Shown: piece after piece, positions 46,487 to 57,733 of the stretch
How positions within the stretch are numbered: the stretch's first letter is position 1
Layout: every line of letters begins with the position of its first letter
NCBI RefSeq assembly: GCF_009363755.1
Contig: NZ_CP045417.1
Span: forward strand, 2,046,001 to 2,110,000
DNA: 64,000 nt
Direction of reading: 5' to 3'
From: Halomonas sp. THAF5a
GTDB lineage: Bacteria > Pseudomonadota > Gammaproteobacteria > Pseudomonadales > Halomonadaceae
Program-made: the position numbers and the translations under genes
Notes under the pieces: generated by a model
The model's input: only the letters and a program-made list of their open reading frames with translations
What the model was told of the DNA's origin: nothing
Databases searched by the model: none

Positions 46487-46618
46487 GTGACCTCCCGTGA
46501 ACGTTCAGGTGAATGGGCAAACCCTCATGGTACCGCGCGGGGCCTCGCCCTGGCATCCCGAAGTTGCACGCGCCGGCCACCGCCGACCAAAGTTCAAGGC
46601 GTCAACCACGGGCTCAAC

Positions 46619-46647
46619 TTAACATTGTCGACAGTTTCCTCTATCAT
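46619..46647 (+). promoter_or_regulatory. Putative sigma-70 promoter of acnB
   Basis: TTAACA (46619-46624), 17 bp, TATCAT (46642-46647): one mismatch in each hexamer from the consensus, with ideal spacing. Transcription from about 46654 gives a leader of roughly 123 bases before the acnB GTG. Confidence 0.65.
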
Positions 46648-46776
46648 CGCGGCACCGCTGACACCCTGGCCGATCGGGCGGGTCTGACGGACCCGTCTCG
46701 TGCCGACGCGTGCCATTCGTCGAGAGCTCGACGCGCATCGCCGGCCCTGGCCACCACTACCGATGAGGGTCCCATC

Positions 46777-49380
46777 GTGCTTGAAGCCTATCGCCAACAT
46801 GTCGAGGAGCGCGCCGCCGACGGCGTGCCGCCCAAGCCGCTGAACGCCGAGCAGGTCGCCGCCCTGGTCGAGCTGCTGAAGAATCCGCCGGCCGGCGAGG
46901 AGGAGTTCATCCTCGACCTGCTCACCAATCGCGTGCCCCCCGGTGTCGATGAGGCCGCCTACGTCAAGGCCGGCTTCCTCACCGCCATCGCCAAGGGCGA
47001 GGCCGAATCGCCGCTGGTCGATCGCATCCACGCGGTCAAGCTGCTGGGCACCATGCAGGGCGGGTACAACATCGTCTCACTGGTCGAGCTGCTGGACGAC
47101 GACTCGCTGGCCAAGGAAGTGGGCGAACAGCTCAAGCACACCCTGCTGATGTTCGATGCCTTCCACGACGTGGAAGAGCGCGCCAAGGCGGGCAACGCCG
47201 TGGCCAAGGAGATCATCCAGTCCTGGGCCGAGGCCGAGTGGTTCCTCGCCAAGCCCAAGCTGGACGAGAAGATCACCCTCACCGTCTTCAAGGTGCCGGG
47301 CGAGACCAACACCGACGACCTCTCCCCCGCCCCGGACGCCTGGTCCCGCCCGGACATCCCGCTGCACGCCAACGCCATGCTCAAGAACGAGCGCGACGGC
47401 ATCGCCCCGGAAGTCCCCGGCACCACCGGTCCGCTGAAGCAGATCGAGGAGGTCAAGGCCAAGGGCTTCCCGGTCGCCTACGTCGGCGACGTGGTCGGCA
47501 CCGGCTCCTCGCGCAAGTCCGCGACCAACTCCGTGCTGTGGTTCTTCGGCGACGACATCCCCCACGTCCCGAACAAGCGCGCCGGCGGCTTCTGCTTCGG
47601 CGGCAAGATCGCCCCGATCTTCTTCAACACCATGGAAGACTCCGGCGCCCTGCCCGTGGAGATGGACGTCGAGAAGCTCGAGATGGGCGACGTGATCGAT
47701 GTCTATCCCTATGAGGGCAAGGTGTGCAAGCACGGCACCGACGAGGTGCTCACCACCTTCGAGCTCAAGACCCAGCTGCTCCTGGACGAAGTGCGTGCCG
47801 GCGGCCGCATCCCGCTGATCATCGGCCGCGGCCTCACCGCCAAGGCGCGCGAGTCCTTGGGCCTCGCCCCCTCCGACGTCTTCCGCCTGCCCGAGCAGCC
47901 GGCCGACACCGGCAAGGGCTTCACCCTGGCCCAGAAGATGGTCGGCAAGGCCTGCGGCATGGACGGCGTGCGTCCCGGCATGTACTGCGAGCCGAAGATG
48001 ACCACCGTGGGCTCCCAGGACACCACCGGCCCGATGACCCGCGACGAGCTCAAGGACCTGGCCTGCCTGGGCTTCCAGGCCGACCTGGTGATGCAGTCCT
48101 TCTGCCACACCGCGGCCTACCCGAAGCCGGTGGACGTCGACACCCACCACACCCTGCCCGACTTCATCATGAACCGCGGCGGCGTCTCGCTGCGCCCGGG
48201 CGACGGCATCATCCACAGCTGGCTCAACCGCATGCTGCTGCCCGACACCGTGGGCACCGGCGGCGACTCCCACACCCGCTTCCCGCTGGGCATCTCCTTC
48301 CCGGCGGGCTCGGGCCTGGTCGCCTTCGCCGCCGCCACCGGCGTGATGCCGCTGGACATGCCGGAGTCCGTGCTGGTGCGCTTCAAGGGCCAGCGCCAGC
48401 CGGGCGTCACCTTGCGTGACCTGGTCCACGCCATCCCCTACTACGCGATCCAGCAGGGGCTGCTGACCGTCGAGAAGTCGGGCAAGAAGAACGCCTTCTC
48501 CGGTCGCGTGCTGGAGATCGAGGGCCTCGAGGACCTCACCGTCGAGCAGGCCTTCGAGCTCTCCGACGCCTCCGCCGAGCGCTCCGCCGCGGGCTGCACC
48601 ATCACCCTGGGCGATGACTCCGTCGCCGAGTACCTGAAGTCCAACATCACCCTGCTCAAGTGGATGATCGCCAACGGCTACGGCGACCGCCGTACCATCG
48701 AGCGCCGCATCCAGGGCATGGAGGAGTGGCTCGAGAACCCGAGCCTGATGCGCGCCGACAAGGACGCCGAGTACGCCGAGGTCATCGAGATCGACCTCGA
48801 CCAGCTCAAGGAGCCGGTGCTCTGCGCCCCGAACGATCCAGACGACGCTCGCCTGCTCTCCGAGGTCGCCGGCGAGAAGATCGACGAGGTCTTCATCGGC
48901 TCGTGCATGACCAACATCGGTCACTTCCGCGCCGCGGGCAAGCTGCTCGAGAAGCAGCCGGCCGGCAGCCTGAAGACCAAGCTGTGGCTTGCGCCGCCGA
49001 CCAAGATGGACCAGCACCAGCTGACCGAGGAAGGCTACTACGGCATCTACGGCCGCGCCGGCGCGCGCATGGAGATGCCGGGCTGCTCGCTGTGCATGGG
49101 TAACCAGGCGCGCGTCGCCGCCAAGAGCACCGTGGTCTCCACCTCGACCCGCAACTTCCCCAACCGCCTGGGCGACGGCGCCGACGTCTACCTGGCGTCC
49201 GCGGAGCTCGCGGCGGTGGCCGCGGTGGAGGGTCGCCTGCCGAGCGTCGACGAGTATCGCCGCTACATGAGCGAGTTCGACGCCATGGCCGGCGAGATCT
49301 ATCGCTACATGAACTTCCACGAGATCGAGGAGTTCCAGAAGGCCGCCTCCAACGTGATCCCGGTCGCCCAGGAAGCCTGA
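46777..49380 (+). CDS. acnB: Bifunctional aconitase B / 2-methylisocitrate dehydratase
   Basis: An 867-residue TCA-cycle enzyme that interconverts citrate and isocitrate. It has the AcnB order: N-terminal HEAT-like domain (1-160), swivelling domain ([14 protein letters not shown]) and catalytic domains. The 4Fe-4S ligands are C710 ([10 protein letters not shown]), C770 and C773 (GCSLCMGNQ), almost the same numbers as in E. coli. The start is a GTG at 46777 with GAGGG upstream. Its last codons and terminator region are duplicated 4.8 kb downstream. Confidence 0.97.
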
Positions 49381-49476
49381 ACGCCGGTGTCGTGAGACCT
49401 TAAGCTCGACTCCGATGCTCGCACCATCGAAGGCCGCCGCTCGCGGTGGCCGGAGCCGATGACCGAAGCGCCCCTC
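49363..49476. repeat. Direct repeat, copy 1 (acnB 3' end and terminator region)
   Basis: 114 bp covering the last acnB codons, its stop and the following region. It is identical to 54160-54273 except for two T/C changes. The two copies are in the same orientation and bracket the island at 49.5-54.15 kb. Confidence 0.95.
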
Positions 49477-49492
49477 ACGGGGCGCTTTTTTT
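49466..49492 (+). terminator. Rho-independent terminator of acnB
   Basis: AAGCGCCCC and GGGGCGCTT form a perfect 9-bp stem with loop TCAC, ending in seven T residues. Confidence 0.93.
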
Positions 49493-49513
49493 GCGTCGGA
49501 ATACTAACGCCGC

Positions 49514-52500
49514 TCACAGATCGAAATCGACCTCTGGTTTCTCGCTCTCGGTTTGACGCCTGCGCTCATCGGCCAAGGCAGCCATTCGCACCGGATGAGC
49601 TATCGCCTGGCGTAAGCTCAATATCCTGGCATCATTGCCAAAAATGGCGCCGATAACCATCACTTCGCTAACTGGACATTCATCAAGTCCACCGAAAAGC
49701 CCCGGTAGCGAATACGTGCTGGCCAGCGAGGAGACAGCCATAACGTCCTGCTCATCAAACCAGGTCGCCCGATTGTCATCAGGCCTCAAATAACCATTCT
49801 CCCGAGCCTTCTGCCCCAAACCAAATTGGGTTTGAGATACACGAGCGCGCGCACGCAAACCGCGCATGCAAGTCGCCGCTTTCGGGTCCTGCGGCACCGC
49901 CGTTGAAGAGAGTCGACTATCTTGCGCCCATAGCGTCAGCACAATCGATGACTCCTGTTCGGTACCGCTCAGCTGCTCTGGATCGACGGTTGGATAGGTT
50001 TCGAGGAGCTTTTGTCTCAATTGCGGCCAGGAAGGCCCCTTACCGGGGGGGAACAGTTTTGTACGAGAGACTGCCGTAACCTTGTCGTCGAGACTTGGAG
50101 GTTCGCGGTAAATCGCTACAAGTTCATGACGGTGTGTCGATTCGATCAGCACGCCGTTGTGAAAAGCTGCCCAGTCGTTTATTGGCTCTACTCCCGCCTC
50201 GCGCGCGACCCGCTGTCTCGACTCAACGGTGGCCTGATATCGCTGATCGGCCTCGATGGCGTCAGCAAGCCTGTCGACAGCAGAGGTAAAGTCTTCTCCG
50301 AGCCTTACCCCCTTAATGGAAAATTCACTCGGGGTTGCGGCATATCCATCCAACTCCGACCTGGCAGAGAGAGCCTGCCCCTCGGCGCCACTCTCTGCCT
50401 GTTCCGAGAAAACGTGCCTAAGGCGCACGCTGTTGTCGTTGATGATGGCCTGCCCGCGGCCAGCGTCGAAGAGAATCACTTCTCTGGGCTCATAGCGCAG
50501 CGTCATCCTGGCGGCAAGCGTTGCGCCCCTGCCGTATCGGTCGTCCACCCCCGAGATCCGCAGGGCGAGCAGCGCATCGAACGCCAGGTCCTCATCGCTG
50601 GCCTGCTGAAACTCGCGGGCCTGCTCCGGCGACATGGGCAGGAAGAGCCCTCGATCTGACGCCTGGGCACTCAACTGGACCGAAAGGGCACGATCGGCTT
50701 CGGGTGCGTTATCGCTGAACTCCGGCGAAAGACCGGTGACAGGCCAGCCCTGGCGCTCGAAATCATAGGGGGAAAGCCGAATGCGCGCCTTGATCCAGTG
50801 CGCACCGGGTTGCTCGAGCCTCGCCCTGATGCCATCAGCCAGCGCCTGCGCGGCCTCCCTTCGGGCAAAGGCATCCGATCCGGCAAACTGGCGGCTCTCC
50901 AGCTGCCGACGAATGATCTCCTCCGGGTCCTGCTCCGCCAGCCTGGCCCCCTGCCAGAGCAGTTCTCCCCGCCACGCCAGCTCGATACGCTCATGAGCAA
51001 CGGGCATTTGACGCTCGAAAGAGACACCGGCGATGACCGGAGCCTCTTGCCAGGCCTGACTGGGCGAGTAGCGACGCACCACCAGACGCTCGGGGTGTCC
51101 TGCCAGCAGCAGCCGCTCCTGGCCGTCCGGCAGCCTCACGATCCTCTCCGCGGTCACGGCGATCTCGACGGCGGCGAAAGGCCGTCCGCCGTCTCTGGAT
51201 TCGTTGCTGGGCAGTACTTCGTTCACCTCATAGACGCGGGCATCTCGCGGCAGCACCACCGTCGCCTGCTGCATGCCTTGCCGGTGGCCCGCGAGGGGGA
51301 GCGAGATGACCTGGAAGTTCTCTACTGGAAGACCGAGTGCCTGGGAGAGTAGGCTGACGTTTCCGTCTCGGCGGCGCTCCTGCAGGAAGTCCTGGAGGCT
51401 GCGCTCCCCTTTCGCCAAGCCTTCGTCATAACTTGCCCGAAAGGAGAACGTCAAACCTGTTTCTTCACGGAAAAGATCTGTGGCCGGTAGCTCATCCAGC
51501 GCTATTACCTTAGCTCGACTCGCAACTCTCTCTACCTCTTCGTCACTGTCCAGCCACCATGGGCGTTCGAAATCCTCGAGTCTTCGTGTCTCATGGGTAT
51601 CGCTGGCGTCACTTAGATCCTCGTCGCGATAGCGATAGAGTACTTCGGAAAGGTCACGGCCAGAGCGTACCTCCAGCGCGCCCGTGGGATTCGCCACGTA
51701 GCTCAGCAGAGGGTGACCGCGATTATCTTGAGAAACGCTGGCCGTTAGTGTGGCAGGGACAGCCAGAGCAAACCGAGCTCCTCCCAGCCGCTTCACCCAC
51801 TCCTCGGCCATCGCAGGGCTCACTGGAACAGACTTGGGCCTCAGTGGAGTATCGATAAGCACGCGGGCTCGGTGGCCGCGAACATTCTTGATGGCCTCTC
51901 CTCCGCCGCTGAAACAGTTTTCTATCGATTGCTGTTTAATGGGAAAACGCTCGTTCTTGAAGTCATAGTTTTCCATGCTTAAACCACAGATCAGGGTCAT
52001 ATTGGCGGAGGGCGGCTGTGCCTCTCGCTGCAAGGCGGCTCGCGCCTTGCCACGCAGCGCTTCCTGGAGTCGTGCAGCTTCAAACTGATTCATGCGCACC
52101 GTATGGGTCAGCATGCCCAGTGACTGTTGCGAAGGGGAAACTTTGACTCCGTTCCTAAACAGCCTCTCGACGCGCTCGAAGCGCGATACATCGATACCCG
52201 CGTCGGCGAATGCCTGCCGCACCTCTGCTAAGGTAAGCGGCTGGCTGCCTACAAAACGCTGCTCGAGTTCCGAGCCTAGTGCCTGGTCAGCCACCATTGC
52301 GGCCAGCCACTGCCGCTGACGCTCCTGCCAGTCGTCATCGTCTCGCCATTCTCTGGGTAGGTTTCCCCATGATCCAATGCTCACCAAAAGAAGCTTCTCA
52401 TCGGCGGCCTGATCTCCACGGTTTTGCTGTAGAGCGCTATCTGGAAGATCAAACGGGTCGACGGAAGTCTGCTCGTCGACCATATCGGTACGGTGCGCTT

Positions 52501-53083
52501 GATTACTGGTAGCCCCTCGCTGCAGTGCGGACTGCAGAGACAACACGAGAGAGCCGCTCGGCTGCCCAGTCTGGCGCATCCCCTGATCGGACTGAAAGTC
52601 CCGAATCGCTCCCGCCGTTTTTCTTCCCATCAGCCCGTCCACCGGTCCTGCAGGATAGCCCAGGCGATTGAGCATCTCTTGAACGCGAGCAATGGTTTCC
52701 CTCGACTCACCGATCGCGTATGCGGAACGTTGGGAACGGTTGTCCTGGCGCGCTTGGGACGCTCTGGCGCCGGTCATTCGCTGGCCGTCTTGGGCCCGGC
52801 GCTGCTGTTGCTCCTGTAGTCGTCGTTGGCGCTGCAGCTCCGCCTGTCGTCTGTAGGCCTCCTGACGCCTAAGCTCTTCTTCTCTCCGCAACGCTTCTTG
52901 GCGACGATATGCCTCCTGCCTGCGGGCATTCTCTTCTTGCAAAATGGATCGTCCCACCCCTTCGATCACTCCTCTCAACAAGTCTTGCTGCGCGCGGGCA
53001 GGAGATGCCACAGCAACCATGACCACGATGAGATAAATGAAACCTATCGACACCCGTTTACCAAAAACTATTGTAGCGAACAT
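49514..53083 (-). CDS. Large exported protein with a peptidoglycan-binding domain
   Basis: A 1189-residue protein that I do not recognise as a whole. It has a signal peptide (hydrophobic core FIYLIVVMVAVA, likely cut after ARA31) and a Gln/Arg/Glu-rich coiled coil at about 45-105 with repeated EAYRRQ. A PG_binding_1 domain lies at about 128-184 (VQEMLNRLGYPAGPVDGLMG). About 1000 residues of unassigned sequence follow. It is likely periplasmic. Third-position GC is lower than in the flanking genes. It lies on the minus strand inside the repeat-flanked island, with a second exported protein encoded 50 bp upstream. The start is uncertain: ATG 53083 is chosen because it begins the signal peptide, but AAGG is only two bases away. 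Confidence 0.75.
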   Translation of the reverse strand: MFATIVFGKRVSIGFIYLIVVMVAVASPARAQQDLLRGVIEGVGRSILQEENARRQEAYRRQEALRREEELRRQEAYRRQAELQRQRRLQEQQQRRAQDGQRMTGARASQARQDNRSQRSAYAIGESRETIARVQEMLNRLGYPAGPVDGLMGRKTAGAIRDFQSDQGMRQTGQPSGSLVLSLQSALQRGATSNQAHRTDMVDEQTSVDPFDLPDSALQQNRGDQAADEKLLLVSIGSWGNLPREWRDDDDWQERQRQWLAAMVADQALGSELEQRFVGSQPLTLAEVRQAFADAGIDVSRFERVERLFRNGVKVSPSQQSLGMLTHTVRMNQFEAARLQEALRGKARAALQREAQPPSANMTLICGLSMENYDFKNERFPIKQQSIENCFSGGGEAIKNVRGHRARVLIDTPLRPKSVPVSPAMAEEWVKRLGGARFALAVPATLTASVSQDNRGHPLLSYVANPTGALEVRSGRDLSEVLYRYRDEDLSDASDTHETRRLEDFERPWWLDSDEEVERVASRAKVIALDELPATDLFREETGLTFSFRASYDEGLAKGERSLQDFLQERRRDGNVSLLSQALGLPVENFQVISLPLAGHRQGMQQATVVLPRDARVYEVNEVLPSNESRDGGRPFAAVEIAVTAERIVRLPDGQERLLLAGHPERLVVRRYSPSQAWQEAPVIAGVSFERQMPVAHERIELAWRGELLWQGARLAEQDPEEIIRRQLESRQFAGSDAFARREAAQALADGIRARLEQPGAHWIKARIRLSPYDFERQGWPVTGLSPEFSDNAPEADRALSVQLSAQASDRGLFLPMSPEQAREFQQASDEDLAFDALLALRISGVDDRYGRGATLAARMTLRYEPREVILFDAGRGQAIINDNSVRLRHVFSEQAESGAEGQALSARSELDGYAATPSEFSIKGVRLGEDFTSAVDRLADAIEADQRYQATVESRQRVAREAGVEPINDWAAFHNGVLIESTHRHELVAIYREPPSLDDKVTAVSRTKLFPPGKGPSWPQLRQKLLETYPTVDPEQLSGTEQESSIVLTLWAQDSRLSSTAVPQDPKAATCMRGLRARARVSQTQFGLGQKARENGYLRPDDNRATWFDEQDVMAVSSLASTYSLPGLFGGLDECPVSEVMVIGAIFGNDARILSLRQAIAHPVRMAALADERRRQTESEKPEVDFDL

Positions 53084-53133
53084 CACCTTCACCCCGCACA
53101 CTTTATTCTATTTATCACCGAACTACCAAGCTG

Positions 53134-53604
53134 CTATAGTCGGCACACTTCACGAAAGTCTTGCATTGCCCGCGCCGACCCGGCCAAGCCTGTATTAAAG
53201 AAGACTCCGACCCGATCCGAGCTAATCGATAACTCCATACCTTGAGAAAAGAATTGCTTACCCTCTTCACCTAGCATCAACTTCCCGACCAAAGCATTAT
53301 CAAGTCCTCCAAGGTATTCTGTATCAATGGCATAACGCCCCGTACGCCTGTCGGGCAAGGTAATCCAGACGATAATCGAAGGCTGATGACGCAAGCTTTC
53401 ATTCAGGGGGACCTCTCCCCCTATCAGCGTAAAGGAAAGAGCCTCCTGACCGCTGAAGCATCCCAAGATCAGCGACTTCTCATCGCTTTTCGCCTGATAG
53501 AATACGCGATCATCTTGCGTTTCTGGCAACAAACTCCAGTCATCGGCCCACAAAGGAAGCGACAGAAGCAGGATACTAATCCCGTATATAGTATTGTTTT
53601 TCAT
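53134..53604 (-). CDS. Small exported protein of unknown function
   Basis: A 156-residue protein with a clear signal peptide (MKNNTIYGISILLLSLPLWA, cleaved before DDW). The mature part is about 136 residues of predicted beta-rich sequence with two cysteines (GCFSG and VCRL) that could form a disulfide. No family is recognised. ATG 53604 has GAGG seven to ten bases upstream. Codon use is AT-richer than the chromosome, as in the neighbouring island gene, suggesting shared foreign origin and perhaps joint function. Confidence 0.72.
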   Translation of the reverse strand: MKNNTIYGISILLLSLPLWADDWSLLPETQDDRVFYQAKSDEKSLILGCFSGQEALSFTLIGGEVPLNESLRHQPSIIVWITLPDRRTGRYAIDTEYLGGLDNALVGKLMLGEEGKQFFSQGMELSISSDRVGVFFNTGLAGSARAMQDFREVCRL

Positions 53605-54159
53605 ATACTTTTTCCTCAATCATCGTTTATCAGCTGCATAATTTTTCAAACTCTCCACCCCTCTGGTCTCTTCATCATTTGAAAGCTCATCACCACTAGC
53701 ACTAGAGACTTAAGACCCATCCATTAATTATTCAAAGGATCACAATGGGAAACAAAGGCGATATCAAAAAGCCAGAAAAACAAAATACTACTCCCATCAA
53801 CGACCGATGCATCAGAAAGATAAAGCGAAAACAAACCGCAAAACAATATCTCTAAACAAACGGTAGACACGGCTCGTTTATTGTCAACCCACACCAACCA
53901 TAAGCCCGACCTGAAAAAACTGTGGCTAATATTCTTCAGTTAATTCAGAGCGTTCTTCCACCCCCCCCCTGCTTCCCTCCCTGCTTCCCTCCCTGCTTCC
54001 AAAGGACCAGCTGTCAGGCGTGATAGCTTCTCTCCTATGGCTTCGCTCCCGAAGAATCCCGCCAGAGTTGGGCGTGAATTCAGGACAACGGCTACGCCAT
54101 GCAGCTTTGAAAACTCCTTGACAACATCTGGACTGATCGAAGGACGCGAAGATAGCCCT
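53605..54159. other. AT-rich non-coding end of the island
   Basis: About 550 bp with much lower GC than the surroundings, especially 53620-53940, and no convincing gene on either strand. It ends in a C-tract and a pyrimidine repeat (12-bp unit CTGCTTCCCTCC, 53969-54000). It probably holds the promoter of the two island genes. An open minus-strand frame through the repeat is low-complexity and runs into the duplicated terminator. Confidence 0.6.
53969..54000. repeat. 12-bp pyrimidine tandem repeat
   Basis: CTGCTTCCCTCC is present twice, followed by CTGCTTCC and preceded by a run of C residues. It is located between the AT-rich island DNA and the right-hand direct repeat. Confidence 0.85.
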
Positions 54160-54273
54160 GTCGCCCAGGAAGCCTGAACGCCGGCGTCGTGAGACCTTAA
54201 GCTCGACTCCGATGCTCGCACCATCGAAGGCCGCCGCTCGCGGCGGCCGGAGCCGATGACCGAAGCGCCCCTC
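54160..54273. repeat. Direct repeat, copy 2 (right end of island)
   Basis: Matches 49363-49476 at 112 of 114 positions and keeps the last codons and stop of acnB (encoding VAQEA-stop) without the rest of the gene. Its upstream sequence is unrelated to acnB. Confidence 0.95.
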
Positions 54274-54288
54274 TGGGGAGCTTTTTTT
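54263..54288 (+). terminator. Decayed copy of the acnB terminator
   Basis: AAGCGCCCC/GGGGAGCTT with a TCT loop and seven T residues. The stem has one G-A mismatch compared with the perfect copy at 49466. Confidence 0.75.
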
Positions 54289-54404
54289 GTGCGCCTCTTC
54301 CCCGCCGCCTTCTCGGCGTCTGCCACCAAAGGGGACCTGTCGTCGCGCCCCGGGCATGGCATCATCGGCACTCGTCAACCGGATCGACCCCAGGAGCCAT
54401 CATC

Positions 54405-54893
54405 GTGAGCCAGATCGTTACCCCCGATATCTGCGACGCCTACCCCGACGTCCAGGTGCTCGAGCCGCTGTTCGTCAACGTCGGCGGCCAGGAGGCCTTC
54501 TGCGGCCCGGTCCGCACCGTGAAGTGCTTCGAGGACAACTCCCGGGTCAAGGAGGCCGTGGCCGAGCCCGGCGACGGCGCCGTGCTGGTGGTGGACGCCG
54601 GCGGCTCGACCCGCTGTGCCATGCTCGGCGACATGCTGGCCGAACAGGCCGCCGGCAACGGCTGGGCCGGGGTGGTGATGTACGGCTGCGTGCGCGACGT
54701 CGACGTCCTGGCCGAGACCGACCTCGGCATCCAGGCGCTGGGCGCCCATCCGCGCAAGAGCGAGAAGCGCGGCGAGGGCCAACGCGACCTGCCGGTGACC
54801 TTCGCCGGGGTGACGATCGCGCCGGGCCAGTGGCTCTATGCCGACAACAACGGCATCCTGATCGCCGACGAGCGGCTGGACCTCGCGCGCTGA
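54405..54893 (+). CDS. rraA: RraA-family protein (RNase E inhibitor / HMG aldolase-like)
   Basis: A 162-residue protein of the RraA fold. It has the N-terminal [16 protein letters not shown], the metal/active-site region [20 protein letters not shown], and [18 protein letters not shown]. Members either inhibit RNase E or act as 4-hydroxy-4-methyl-2-oxoglutarate aldolases; sequence alone does not decide. The start is a GTG at 54405, with AGGAG eight bases upstream. It lies just beyond the right end of the island. Confidence 0.92.
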
Positions 54894-56933: not shown

Positions 56934-56942
56934 CCGTCCGAT

Positions 56943-57336
56943 CAGTCACGACAGCGCCAGGCGGCCAGCAGACTCACCGCGGCCAGGGCCAGCAGCCCGG
57001 CGGCGCCGACACCGAGGATCTCGACGAGGCGATGGAACCCCCCCGGGGCCTCGTGGGGGCGGAAGGTCATGCTGTCAGTCACGACAGCGCAAGGCGGCCA
57101 GCAGACTCACCGCGGCCAGGGCCAGCAGCCCGGCGGCGCCGACACCGAGGATCTCGACGAGGCGATGGCCTCCCCGGGGCCTCGTGGGGGCGGAAGGTCA
57201 TGCTGTCAGTCACGACAGCGCCAGGCGGCCAGCAGACTCACCGCGGCCAGGGCCAGCAGCCCGGCGGCGCCGACACCGAGGATCTCGACGAGGCGATGGA
57301 ACCCCCCCGGGGCCTCGTGGGGGCGGAAGGTCATGC
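56943..57336. repeat. Tandem triplication of the 3' end of the membrane-protein gene
   Basis: Three direct copies: 56943-57075 (133 bp), 57076-57206 (131 bp) and 57207-57336. The third is the genuine 3' end of the minus-strand gene. Copies 1 and 3 are identical over about 130 bp. Copy 2 has a C-to-A change and a two-base-shorter variant of the C-run. Each copy contains an ATG and a stop on the minus strand. Copy 1 (56942-57070) would encode an intact 42-residue version of the tail starting MTFRPHEAPGG, whereas copy 2 is shifted out of frame. Confidence 0.93.
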
Positions 57337-57733
57337 CGTACTCTGCCAGGCGGCTGCCACCGTAGAGCAGCAGGGCCAGGAGCCCCAGCGGCAGCGACGA
57401 GCGCCGCCGGGCCAGCCAGCGGGTCAGCCGCCAGGGCTCGGACGGGGCCTTGGCGGTTCGGCCACGACTCGAGGCCTTGGTCGGGGCCTTGTTCGAGGCC
57501 TTGCTCGAGGTCTTGGGGGCCGGCTTGGGAGAGGCCTTGGCGCGATTCGCCGTCCGTCGCGCCGGCTGCCGAGACGCTCTGCCGCCCCCACCGGGCAGCC
57601 GGCGGGCCAGCCAGCGCCCGGTGACGACCAGCCCCCAGCCCAGGGTGAAGCAGACCGAGAGCGCGAGCGCCCCCATCACCAGCAAGTATGTCATTGCGAT
57701 CGATGTCCGAGTGAGCTCTTCAGGGGGCGCCAT
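57206..57733 (-). CDS. Small membrane protein with a Lys/Ala/Pro-rich linker
   Basis: A 175-residue protein that I do not recognise. There is a membrane helix near the N-terminus (YLLVMGALALSVCFTLGWGL) and a basic Lys/Ala/Ser/Pro linker at about 50-98. Two further helices follow, the last being GVGAAGLLALAAVSLLAAW, ending WRCRD. The final 43 codons form the unit that is repeated twice downstream. The start is unclear: ATG 57733 or ATG 57694 (MTYLLVMG); neither has a strong ribosome-binding site. Confidence 0.65.
   Translation of the reverse strand: MAPPEELTRTSIAMTYLLVMGALALSVCFTLGWGLVVTGRWLARRLPGGGGRASRQPARRTANRAKASPKPAPKTSSKASNKAPTKASSRGRTAKAPSEPWRLTRWLARRRSSLPLGLLALLLYGGSRLAEYGMTFRPHEAPGGFHRLVEILGVGAAGLLALAAVSLLAAWRCRD

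What the first reader, a model, noticed from the sequence alone, without database searches (positions are those of the whole stretch)
49363..54273. Island bracketed by 114-bp direct repeats of the acnB 3' end
The last acnB codons, stop and following region occur twice in the same orientation (112 of 114 identical). They enclose about 4.7 kb of AT-richer DNA with two exported proteins. A duplicated gene end at the far side is what integration into a gene's 3' end leaves behind. There is no integrase or transposase, so this may be a remnant, a mobilisable passenger, or the result of unequal recombination. acnB is not a commonly described integration site.
Basis: partly seen in the sequence, partly recalled or inferred. 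Interest (0 to 1): 0.72.

Follow-up and report, generated by a model that had tools for sequence, protein, structure and literature searches.

The report
Foreign genes stacked behind acnB
A two-gene block of foreign-looking DNA sits directly behind a central metabolism gene in this bacterium, bracketed by two copies of that gene's tail, and a few related species show the same bracketing around other genes, so ordinary recombination at that tail is the likeliest way in.

Summary
The repeat is real: 49363-49476 and 54160-54273, 112/114 identical, found at two places in the genome. It is acnB's last five codons, stop, 3'UTR and half a terminator. Close relatives have one copy and no insert: 37 of 87 same-genus loci are empty. 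So this is a 4797-bp insertion that duplicated the acnB end. The insert is AT-richer (57% against 72% G+C) and holds a small and a 1195-aa protein with signal-like N-termini, neighbours in Halomonas alimentaria too; no recombinase was found in it. The acnB-rraA gap is a gene-turnover spot. A second UTR copy occurs in 3 of 87 relatives, each time where two alternative downstream gene blocks stand in series. Best reading (0.55): additive single-crossover homologous recombination with acnB-linked donor DNA. A site-specific element that lost or never carried its integrase (0.22) is not excluded. By-product: the duplicated tail holds a structured RNA element with no Rfam match, found in 205 of 275 family genomes, behind a gene whose E. 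coli protein binds its own 3'UTR.

The parts
46513..49380 (+). acnB (aconitate hydratase B); the listed ORF start is probably upstream of the true start, the family model begins at residue 89
   Evidence: TIGR00117 acnB 1556 bits
49363..49476 (+). repeat copy 1: last five acnB codons, stop, 3'UTR, first half of the terminator
   Evidence: 112/114 identical to copy 2
49404..49491 (+). conserved acnB 3'UTR RNA element (model R1), copy 1, with terminator
   Evidence: 105.9 bits; in the model by construction
49492..54159 (.). inserted DNA, 56.8% G+C
   Evidence: absent from the closest relatives
49514..53101 (-). 1195-aa protein with a peptidoglycan-binding domain and signal-like N-terminus
   Evidence: PF01471 E 9e-12; relatives 37-79% identical over the aligned length
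53134..53619 (-). 161/156-aa protein of no known family, signal-like N-terminus
   Evidence: no Pfam, PHROG, PADLOC, NCBIfam or PDB match; 8 database rows including itself
53940..54161 (-). 73-codon stretch of an open frame that runs into copy 2; possible remnant of a gene cut by the right junction, unproven
   Evidence: no relative in 275 family genomes besides the own one, nor in plasmids or phages
54160..54273 (+). repeat copy 2
   Evidence: its right flank aligns with the acnB-rraA spacer of empty-site relatives
54201..54287 (+). acnB 3'UTR RNA element, copy 2
   Evidence: 97.2 bits; in the model by construction
54405..54893 (+). rraA, the usual downstream neighbour
   Evidence: PF03737, NF006875

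Best explanation
The block is acquired DNA added behind acnB by homologous single-crossover (additive) recombination. A donor molecule carrying the end of an acnB gene, its UTR-terminator and a different downstream gene block entered the cell, was circular or became so, and crossed over within the acnB tail. The product is acnB - tail - new block - tail - old block (rraA). Shown: the insertion, the duplicated tail, the empty sites, no recombinase found in the insert, and three further loci with the same stacked layout. Inferred: the donor, its circular form, the crossover and RecA. Copy 1 leaves acnB complete and terminated, so the insert should cost the host little.
For: Empty sites with one tail in 37 of 87 same-genus loci and window sequence beyond copy 2 aligning with their spacer. 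No target DNA lost: acnB end to rraA is 206-243 bp in the five nearest relatives and 231 bp from copy 2 here. Of 87 loci, the three with a second UTR copy at acnB (L082, L105, L227) are those where two blocks that elsewhere follow acnB singly stand in series: barrel gene + ABC operon twice, phytochrome + barrel gene once. Ordinary genes in the scanned inserts. Precedent: in E. coli, 56 of 60 clones examined by PCR had a duplication of the homologous gene end, 109-950 bp in 14 sequenced, ascribed to one crossover with a circular molecule lacking part of the fragment (PMC3240628, passages).
Against: The donor arrangement (acnB - single tail - these two genes) was not found. The barrel and ABC/phytochrome grouping was made after the second copies had been seen. 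L206 has the barrel gene plus other blocks and no second copy. L105 and L227 may be one event. In L082 and L227 the second copy begins in the P2 stem-loop, which would also fit a fixed crossover core, or decay. Copy 1's flanks look partly unlike the sister species (4 sites in 26 nt just upstream, and the terminator loop), which a simple crossover does not explain without later gene conversion.
Confidence: 0.55

Rival explanations
1. Remnant, or trans-mobilised passenger, of a site-specific element whose tyrosine recombinase uses the acnB tail; the 114-bp copies are attL and attR. Helix P2 of the UTR element (5-bp stem, 7-nt loop) would be the core, like an anticodon arm in tRNA genes (that likeness is recalled, not from a call).
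For: Duplicated gene 3' end and empty sites are what such elements leave. P2 is a near-invariant inverted repeat. Second copies in L082 and L227 begin in P2. The genome has 7 PF00589 matches that could act in trans.
Against: No integrase found in this insert or among the genes scanned in other acnB inserts, apart from one Y1-type transposase in L096; not every ORF was scanned. Nearest PF00589 match about 262 kb away. No such tail in phage, plasmid or IMG/VR records as searched. Left ends of the far copy differ between events (5 codons, 14 codons, or inside P2).
Confidence: 0.22
2. One-sided homologous, one-sided illegitimate recombination of linear donor DNA (HFIR): homology in acnB on the left, random joining on the right, just inside the acnB end.
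For: The right junction cuts an open frame. A tract upstream of copy 1 (49334-49359) matches another clade at 4 sites, as if a donor acnB end had replaced the host's.
Against: PMC3240628 (passages) describes deletions of about the size of the insert as the usual result, and none is seen here. The two tails are 98% alike, so the donor would have to be the same species or the copies later converted.
Confidence: 0.1
3. A tandem duplication of the acnB-rraA region by unequal recombination came first, and the foreign genes entered between the copies later.
For: Cannot be told from the other routes by the present sequence alone.
Against: None of the 87 same-genus loci showed two tails without an insert between them.
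Confidence: 0.08

Closest known systems
Single-crossover (Campbell-type) addition with duplication of the homologous gene end, as seen at lacZ in E. coli (PMC3240628)
   Same: Foreign DNA flanked by direct repeats of a gene end; repeat length of the same order (109-950 bp there, 114 bp here); no recombinase needed
   Different: Natural event, donor unknown; apparently repeated with other cargo at the same gene end in related species
Genomic islands and cis-mobilizable elements (CIMEs) in gene 3' ends
   Same: Duplicated 3' end, empty site in relatives, foreign cargo, no own integrase (as in a CIME)
   Different: No integrase-bearing partner at acnB found; far-copy start differs between events; alternative cargo also occurs singly without a second tail
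E. coli acnB 3'UTR stem-loop bound by apo-AcnB (PMC4150767)
   Same: Structured RNA just behind the acnB stop codon
   Different: The element here is about 88 nt with up to three helices and a terminator and is found across much of the family; AcnB binding is untested. A review says the E. coli acnB 3'UTR is not conserved among close relatives (PMC7821165, passages)

Membership tests
Integrative element in a gene 3' end (island or CIME) | direct repeat of the gene 3' end at both ends | tested here: met
   112/114
Integrative element in a gene 3' end (island or CIME) | empty site with one copy in relatives | tested here: met
   37 of 87 loci
Integrative element in a gene 3' end (island or CIME) | own integrase (island) | tested here: not met
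   none in the insert; nearest PF00589 match about 262 kb away
Integrative element in a gene 3' end (island or CIME) | a related element with integrase at the same site (needed for a CIME) | tested here: inconclusive
   not found in the loci and collections examined; not all ORFs scanned, one genome per species
Integrative element in a gene 3' end (island or CIME) | recombinase-dependent excision | not testable with these tools
   needs experiment
Single-crossover homologous addition | duplication of the homologous stretch, no loss of target DNA | tested here: met
Single-crossover homologous addition | a donor with the same acnB tail and this cargo | tested here: inconclusive
   the gene pair is known from H. 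alimentaria, in a gapped assembly next to a second ABC operon copy; no acnB tail seen on that 5.2-kb contig
Single-crossover homologous addition | RecA dependence | not testable with these tools
   needs experiment
Homology-facilitated illegitimate recombination | deletion at the illegitimate end, usual in the literature | tested here: not met
   spacing to rraA is that of the empty site
AcnB-binding acnB 3'UTR | conserved RNA structure behind acnB | tested here: met
AcnB-binding acnB 3'UTR | binding by iron-free AcnB | not testable with these tools
   needs experiment

The most novel reading that the evidence does not exclude
The conserved acnB 3'UTR element is both a regulatory RNA and a DNA landing pad: its symmetric P2 stem-loop (5+7+5) acts like an anticodon arm for a recombinase supplied elsewhere, so that cargo plus a copy of the UTR behaves as a cassette that can be stacked behind acnB in many species of the family.
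Probability: 0.1. Interest if true: 0.75.

Novelty: new variant of a known kind. Interest (0 to 1): 0.45.

Why it matters
If right, a duplicated gene end around foreign DNA need not mean an integrase: a short conserved UTR-terminator behind a core gene can serve as a homology handle by which alternative gene blocks are stacked. It also exposes a family-wide structured RNA at the end of acnB, so that aconitase autoregulation through the 3'UTR, known in E. coli, becomes testable in another lineage.

Tried and rejected
Dispersed repeat: rejected for this genome. With model R1 most genomes have one strong match; weak further matches (28-32 bits) at other places in 9 of 58 genomes look like terminators only, which was not checked one by one. 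One search gives two matches for G000, G005, G098, G122, G129, G227, G230 and G272; for G098, G227 and G230 the second was not in the stretch fetched, G272 was not fetched.

Phage or plasmid origin of the cargo: matches of the large protein in plasmids, phages and viral contigs are confined to the region of its peptidoglycan-binding domain (query residues 83-299 at the widest). Anti-phage defence: no PADLOC match. Rfam: no match to E 5 in 49200-54500. Fold of the large protein: mean pLDDT 65, pTM 0.33, no PDB match with E <= 0.001; dropped. Junction frame: no relative. The H. alimentaria scaffold has an N run beside one ABC copy, and the other copy is cut short next to what looks like gyrB (named by eye), so its layout is not relied on.

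Literature (PMC library only): one paper held acnB, genomic island and integration site together, with unrelated passages. Searches were seen as listings with abstract starts; passages were read in PMC4235733, PMC4150767, PMC7821165 and PMC3240628; no paper was read whole.

Full report
Observation. The repeat is as described: 49363-49476 and 54160-54273 agree at 112 of 114 positions, same orientation, start-to-start 4797 bp. It comprises the last five acnB codons, the stop, the 3'UTR and the first half of an intrinsic terminator; similarity runs on through the terminator with more differences. A search of the own 3,806,748-bp genome found these two places. The DNA between, 49492-54159, is 56.8% G+C against 72.3% in the rest of the window.

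Empty site. The searches named 89 same-genus relatives (G001-G036, G084-G136); 87 were examined at this locus (not G112 and G118, where neither the repeat nor R1 was found; G086 was read through G296, which from its 5,202-bp contig I take to be the same H. alimentaria genome). In 37 of 87, rraA starts within 400 bp of the acnB end. These include the relatives with the closest repeat: G100 (94%), G020 and G096 (90%) over 125 bases, G133 and G085 (97% and 95% over 86 bases). The window beyond copy 2 aligns with their acnB-rraA spacer, and copy 2 to rraA is 231 bp against 206-243 bp there, so copy 2 with its right flank is the old arrangement and no target DNA was lost. The two copies (98% alike) are closer to each other than copy 1 is to G100 (94%), so the duplication, or a later homogenisation, postdates that split.

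Which copy is native is not settled. Copy 2's terminator loop resembles G100 and G020, copy 1's resembles G133 and G085. Just upstream of copy 1, at 49334-49359, own acnB differs from all five near relatives at 4 sites and there matches G114, G023 and G024 (three of the four also G125, G016 and G130). This may be a short donor or conversion tract, or chance, since these codons vary across the genus.

Cargo. The large gene (49514-53101, minus) encodes 1195 aa with a peptidoglycan-binding domain. A search with residues 200-1195 gave 12 proteins at E <= 0.001 (7988 candidates scored), in Halomonas, Nitratireductor, Roseovarius and unnamed sources; P0004 is a 98%-identical shorter version. The small gene (53134-53619, minus) matches no family model and has 8 database rows including itself. 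At E <= 1e-30, 3 of 275 family genomes matched the large protein: the own one, G086 over nearly the full length, and G017 over residues 29-198 only. In H. alimentaria the pair lies next to a second, divergent copy of an ABC operon that in 9 of 87 loci follows acnB directly. This hints at the same spot, but the assembly there is gapped. The function of both proteins is unknown; their N-termini suggest export, and the large one probably works at the cell wall (inference).

A gene-turnover spot. The 87 loci fall as follows: 37 empty; 19 with an OmpA-like barrel gene before rraA (span 400-1500 bp); 9 with the ABC operon; 2 with barrel gene and ABC operon; 4 with a phytochrome gene; 1 with phytochrome and barrel genes; 1 with barrel gene and others (L206); 7 with other genes before rraA; 4 with neither rraA nor ABC although more than 1500 bp were at hand; 3 with less than 1500 bp. 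Twenty genes were scanned, one of them the window's own junction frame. The other 19 are ordinary: phytochromes with GGDEF domain, heme oxygenases, barrel proteins, a 1701-aa adhesin-like protein, AraC regulators, alcohol dehydrogenases, molybdopterin oxidoreductase, GTP cyclohydrolase, DJ-1 and the like, and one Y1-type transposase (L096). Other ORFs in the inserts were not scanned.

Stacking. A second UTR copy near acnB was found in 3 of 87 relatives. L105: barrel gene between the copies, the second copy with 14 decayed acnB codons, 80% over 183 columns. L227: barrel gene, the second copy starting in P2. L082: heme oxygenase and phytochrome genes between, a degenerate second copy (38 bits) starting in P2, then the barrel gene and rraA. 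These are the three loci in which blocks that elsewhere stand singly are in series; L206 is an exception without a second copy, and the grouping was made after the copies were known. L105 and L227 may share one event. The layout acnB - tail - block A - tail - block B is what one crossover between an acnB-tail-bearing circular molecule and the chromosome gives. PMC3240628 (passages) reports such duplications in 56 of 60 clones of an E. coli experiment, 109-950 bp in 14 sequenced. I therefore prefer additive homologous recombination (0.55). The integrase reading stays open (0.22): the end product is alike, and P2 has the symmetry I recall for integrase targets in tRNA genes.

The RNA element. 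In an alignment of 46 UTR copies from 45 species' loci and the window (A4), the block CGACUCCGAUGCUCGCA-CAUCG is nearly invariant, followed by a variable hairpin and a terminator. For helices P1, P2, P3 and terminator, 92.3% of cells pair (88.1% in shuffles, 33-59% in slid controls) and 48 cells change on both sides against 10.7 in shuffles. Most of that comes from P3 (6 of 8 pairs). P1 and P2 hardly vary, and one P1 pair (columns 6-84) is unpaired in 41 of 46. Folding copy 1 alone gives another pairing, CAUCG with the downstream CGAUG around P3 (z -3.6), which is also conserved. So P3 and the terminator are well supported; P1 and P2, and which pairing prevails, are not settled. Model R1 matches 34 of 36 nearest same-genus relatives and 0 of 21 genomes of other families in the order at E <= 0.01, and 205 of 275 family genomes in 11 of 24 genera at E <= 5e-4. 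The sequences used in the model match by construction; the other genera were not used. Only four loci outside the genus were checked to lie behind acnB, and all four do (L232-L235). Rfam gave nothing. In E. coli, apo-AcnB binds a stem-loop in its own 3'UTR (PMC4150767, passages), and a review states that this UTR is not conserved in close relatives (PMC7821165, passages). Whether AcnB binds R1 is unknown.

Limits. The host's name was not given; the named relatives nearest are mostly Halomonas. Donor, circular form and RecA are inferred. Counts are of one genome per species, not strains.

Noticed in passing
window 49404-49491 and 54201-54287: Structured acnB 3'UTR RNA element, no Rfam match, in 205 of 275 family genomes; possible AcnB target or 3'UTR-derived small RNA.
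   Followed up: partly
window 54405-54893: rraA, named as an RNase E activity regulator, is the usual neighbour of acnB here, while E. coli acnB mRNA is protected from RNase E by AcnB at its 3'UTR. Coincidence or link unknown.
   Followed up: no
window 49334-49359: Four sites in 26 nt just upstream of repeat copy 1 match another clade of the genus and not the nearest relatives: possible conversion or donor tract.
   Followed up: partly
window 56942-57339: Three tandem copies of about 133 nt, the third 99% and the middle one 79% like the first.
   Followed up: no
window 57456-57539: Run of 12-nt repeats inside the minus-strand ORF 57206-57733.
   Followed up: no
L198, L199, L108 (H. alimentaria): Two divergent copies of a 68-aa gene plus ABC ATPase operon, one behind acnB and one next to the small and large genes.
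   Followed up: partly
L096:2113-3325: The acnB-rraA insert of G094 holds a Y1-type transposase gene and frames with recurring short motifs, as if a REP-like array with its transposase (inference).
   Followed up: no
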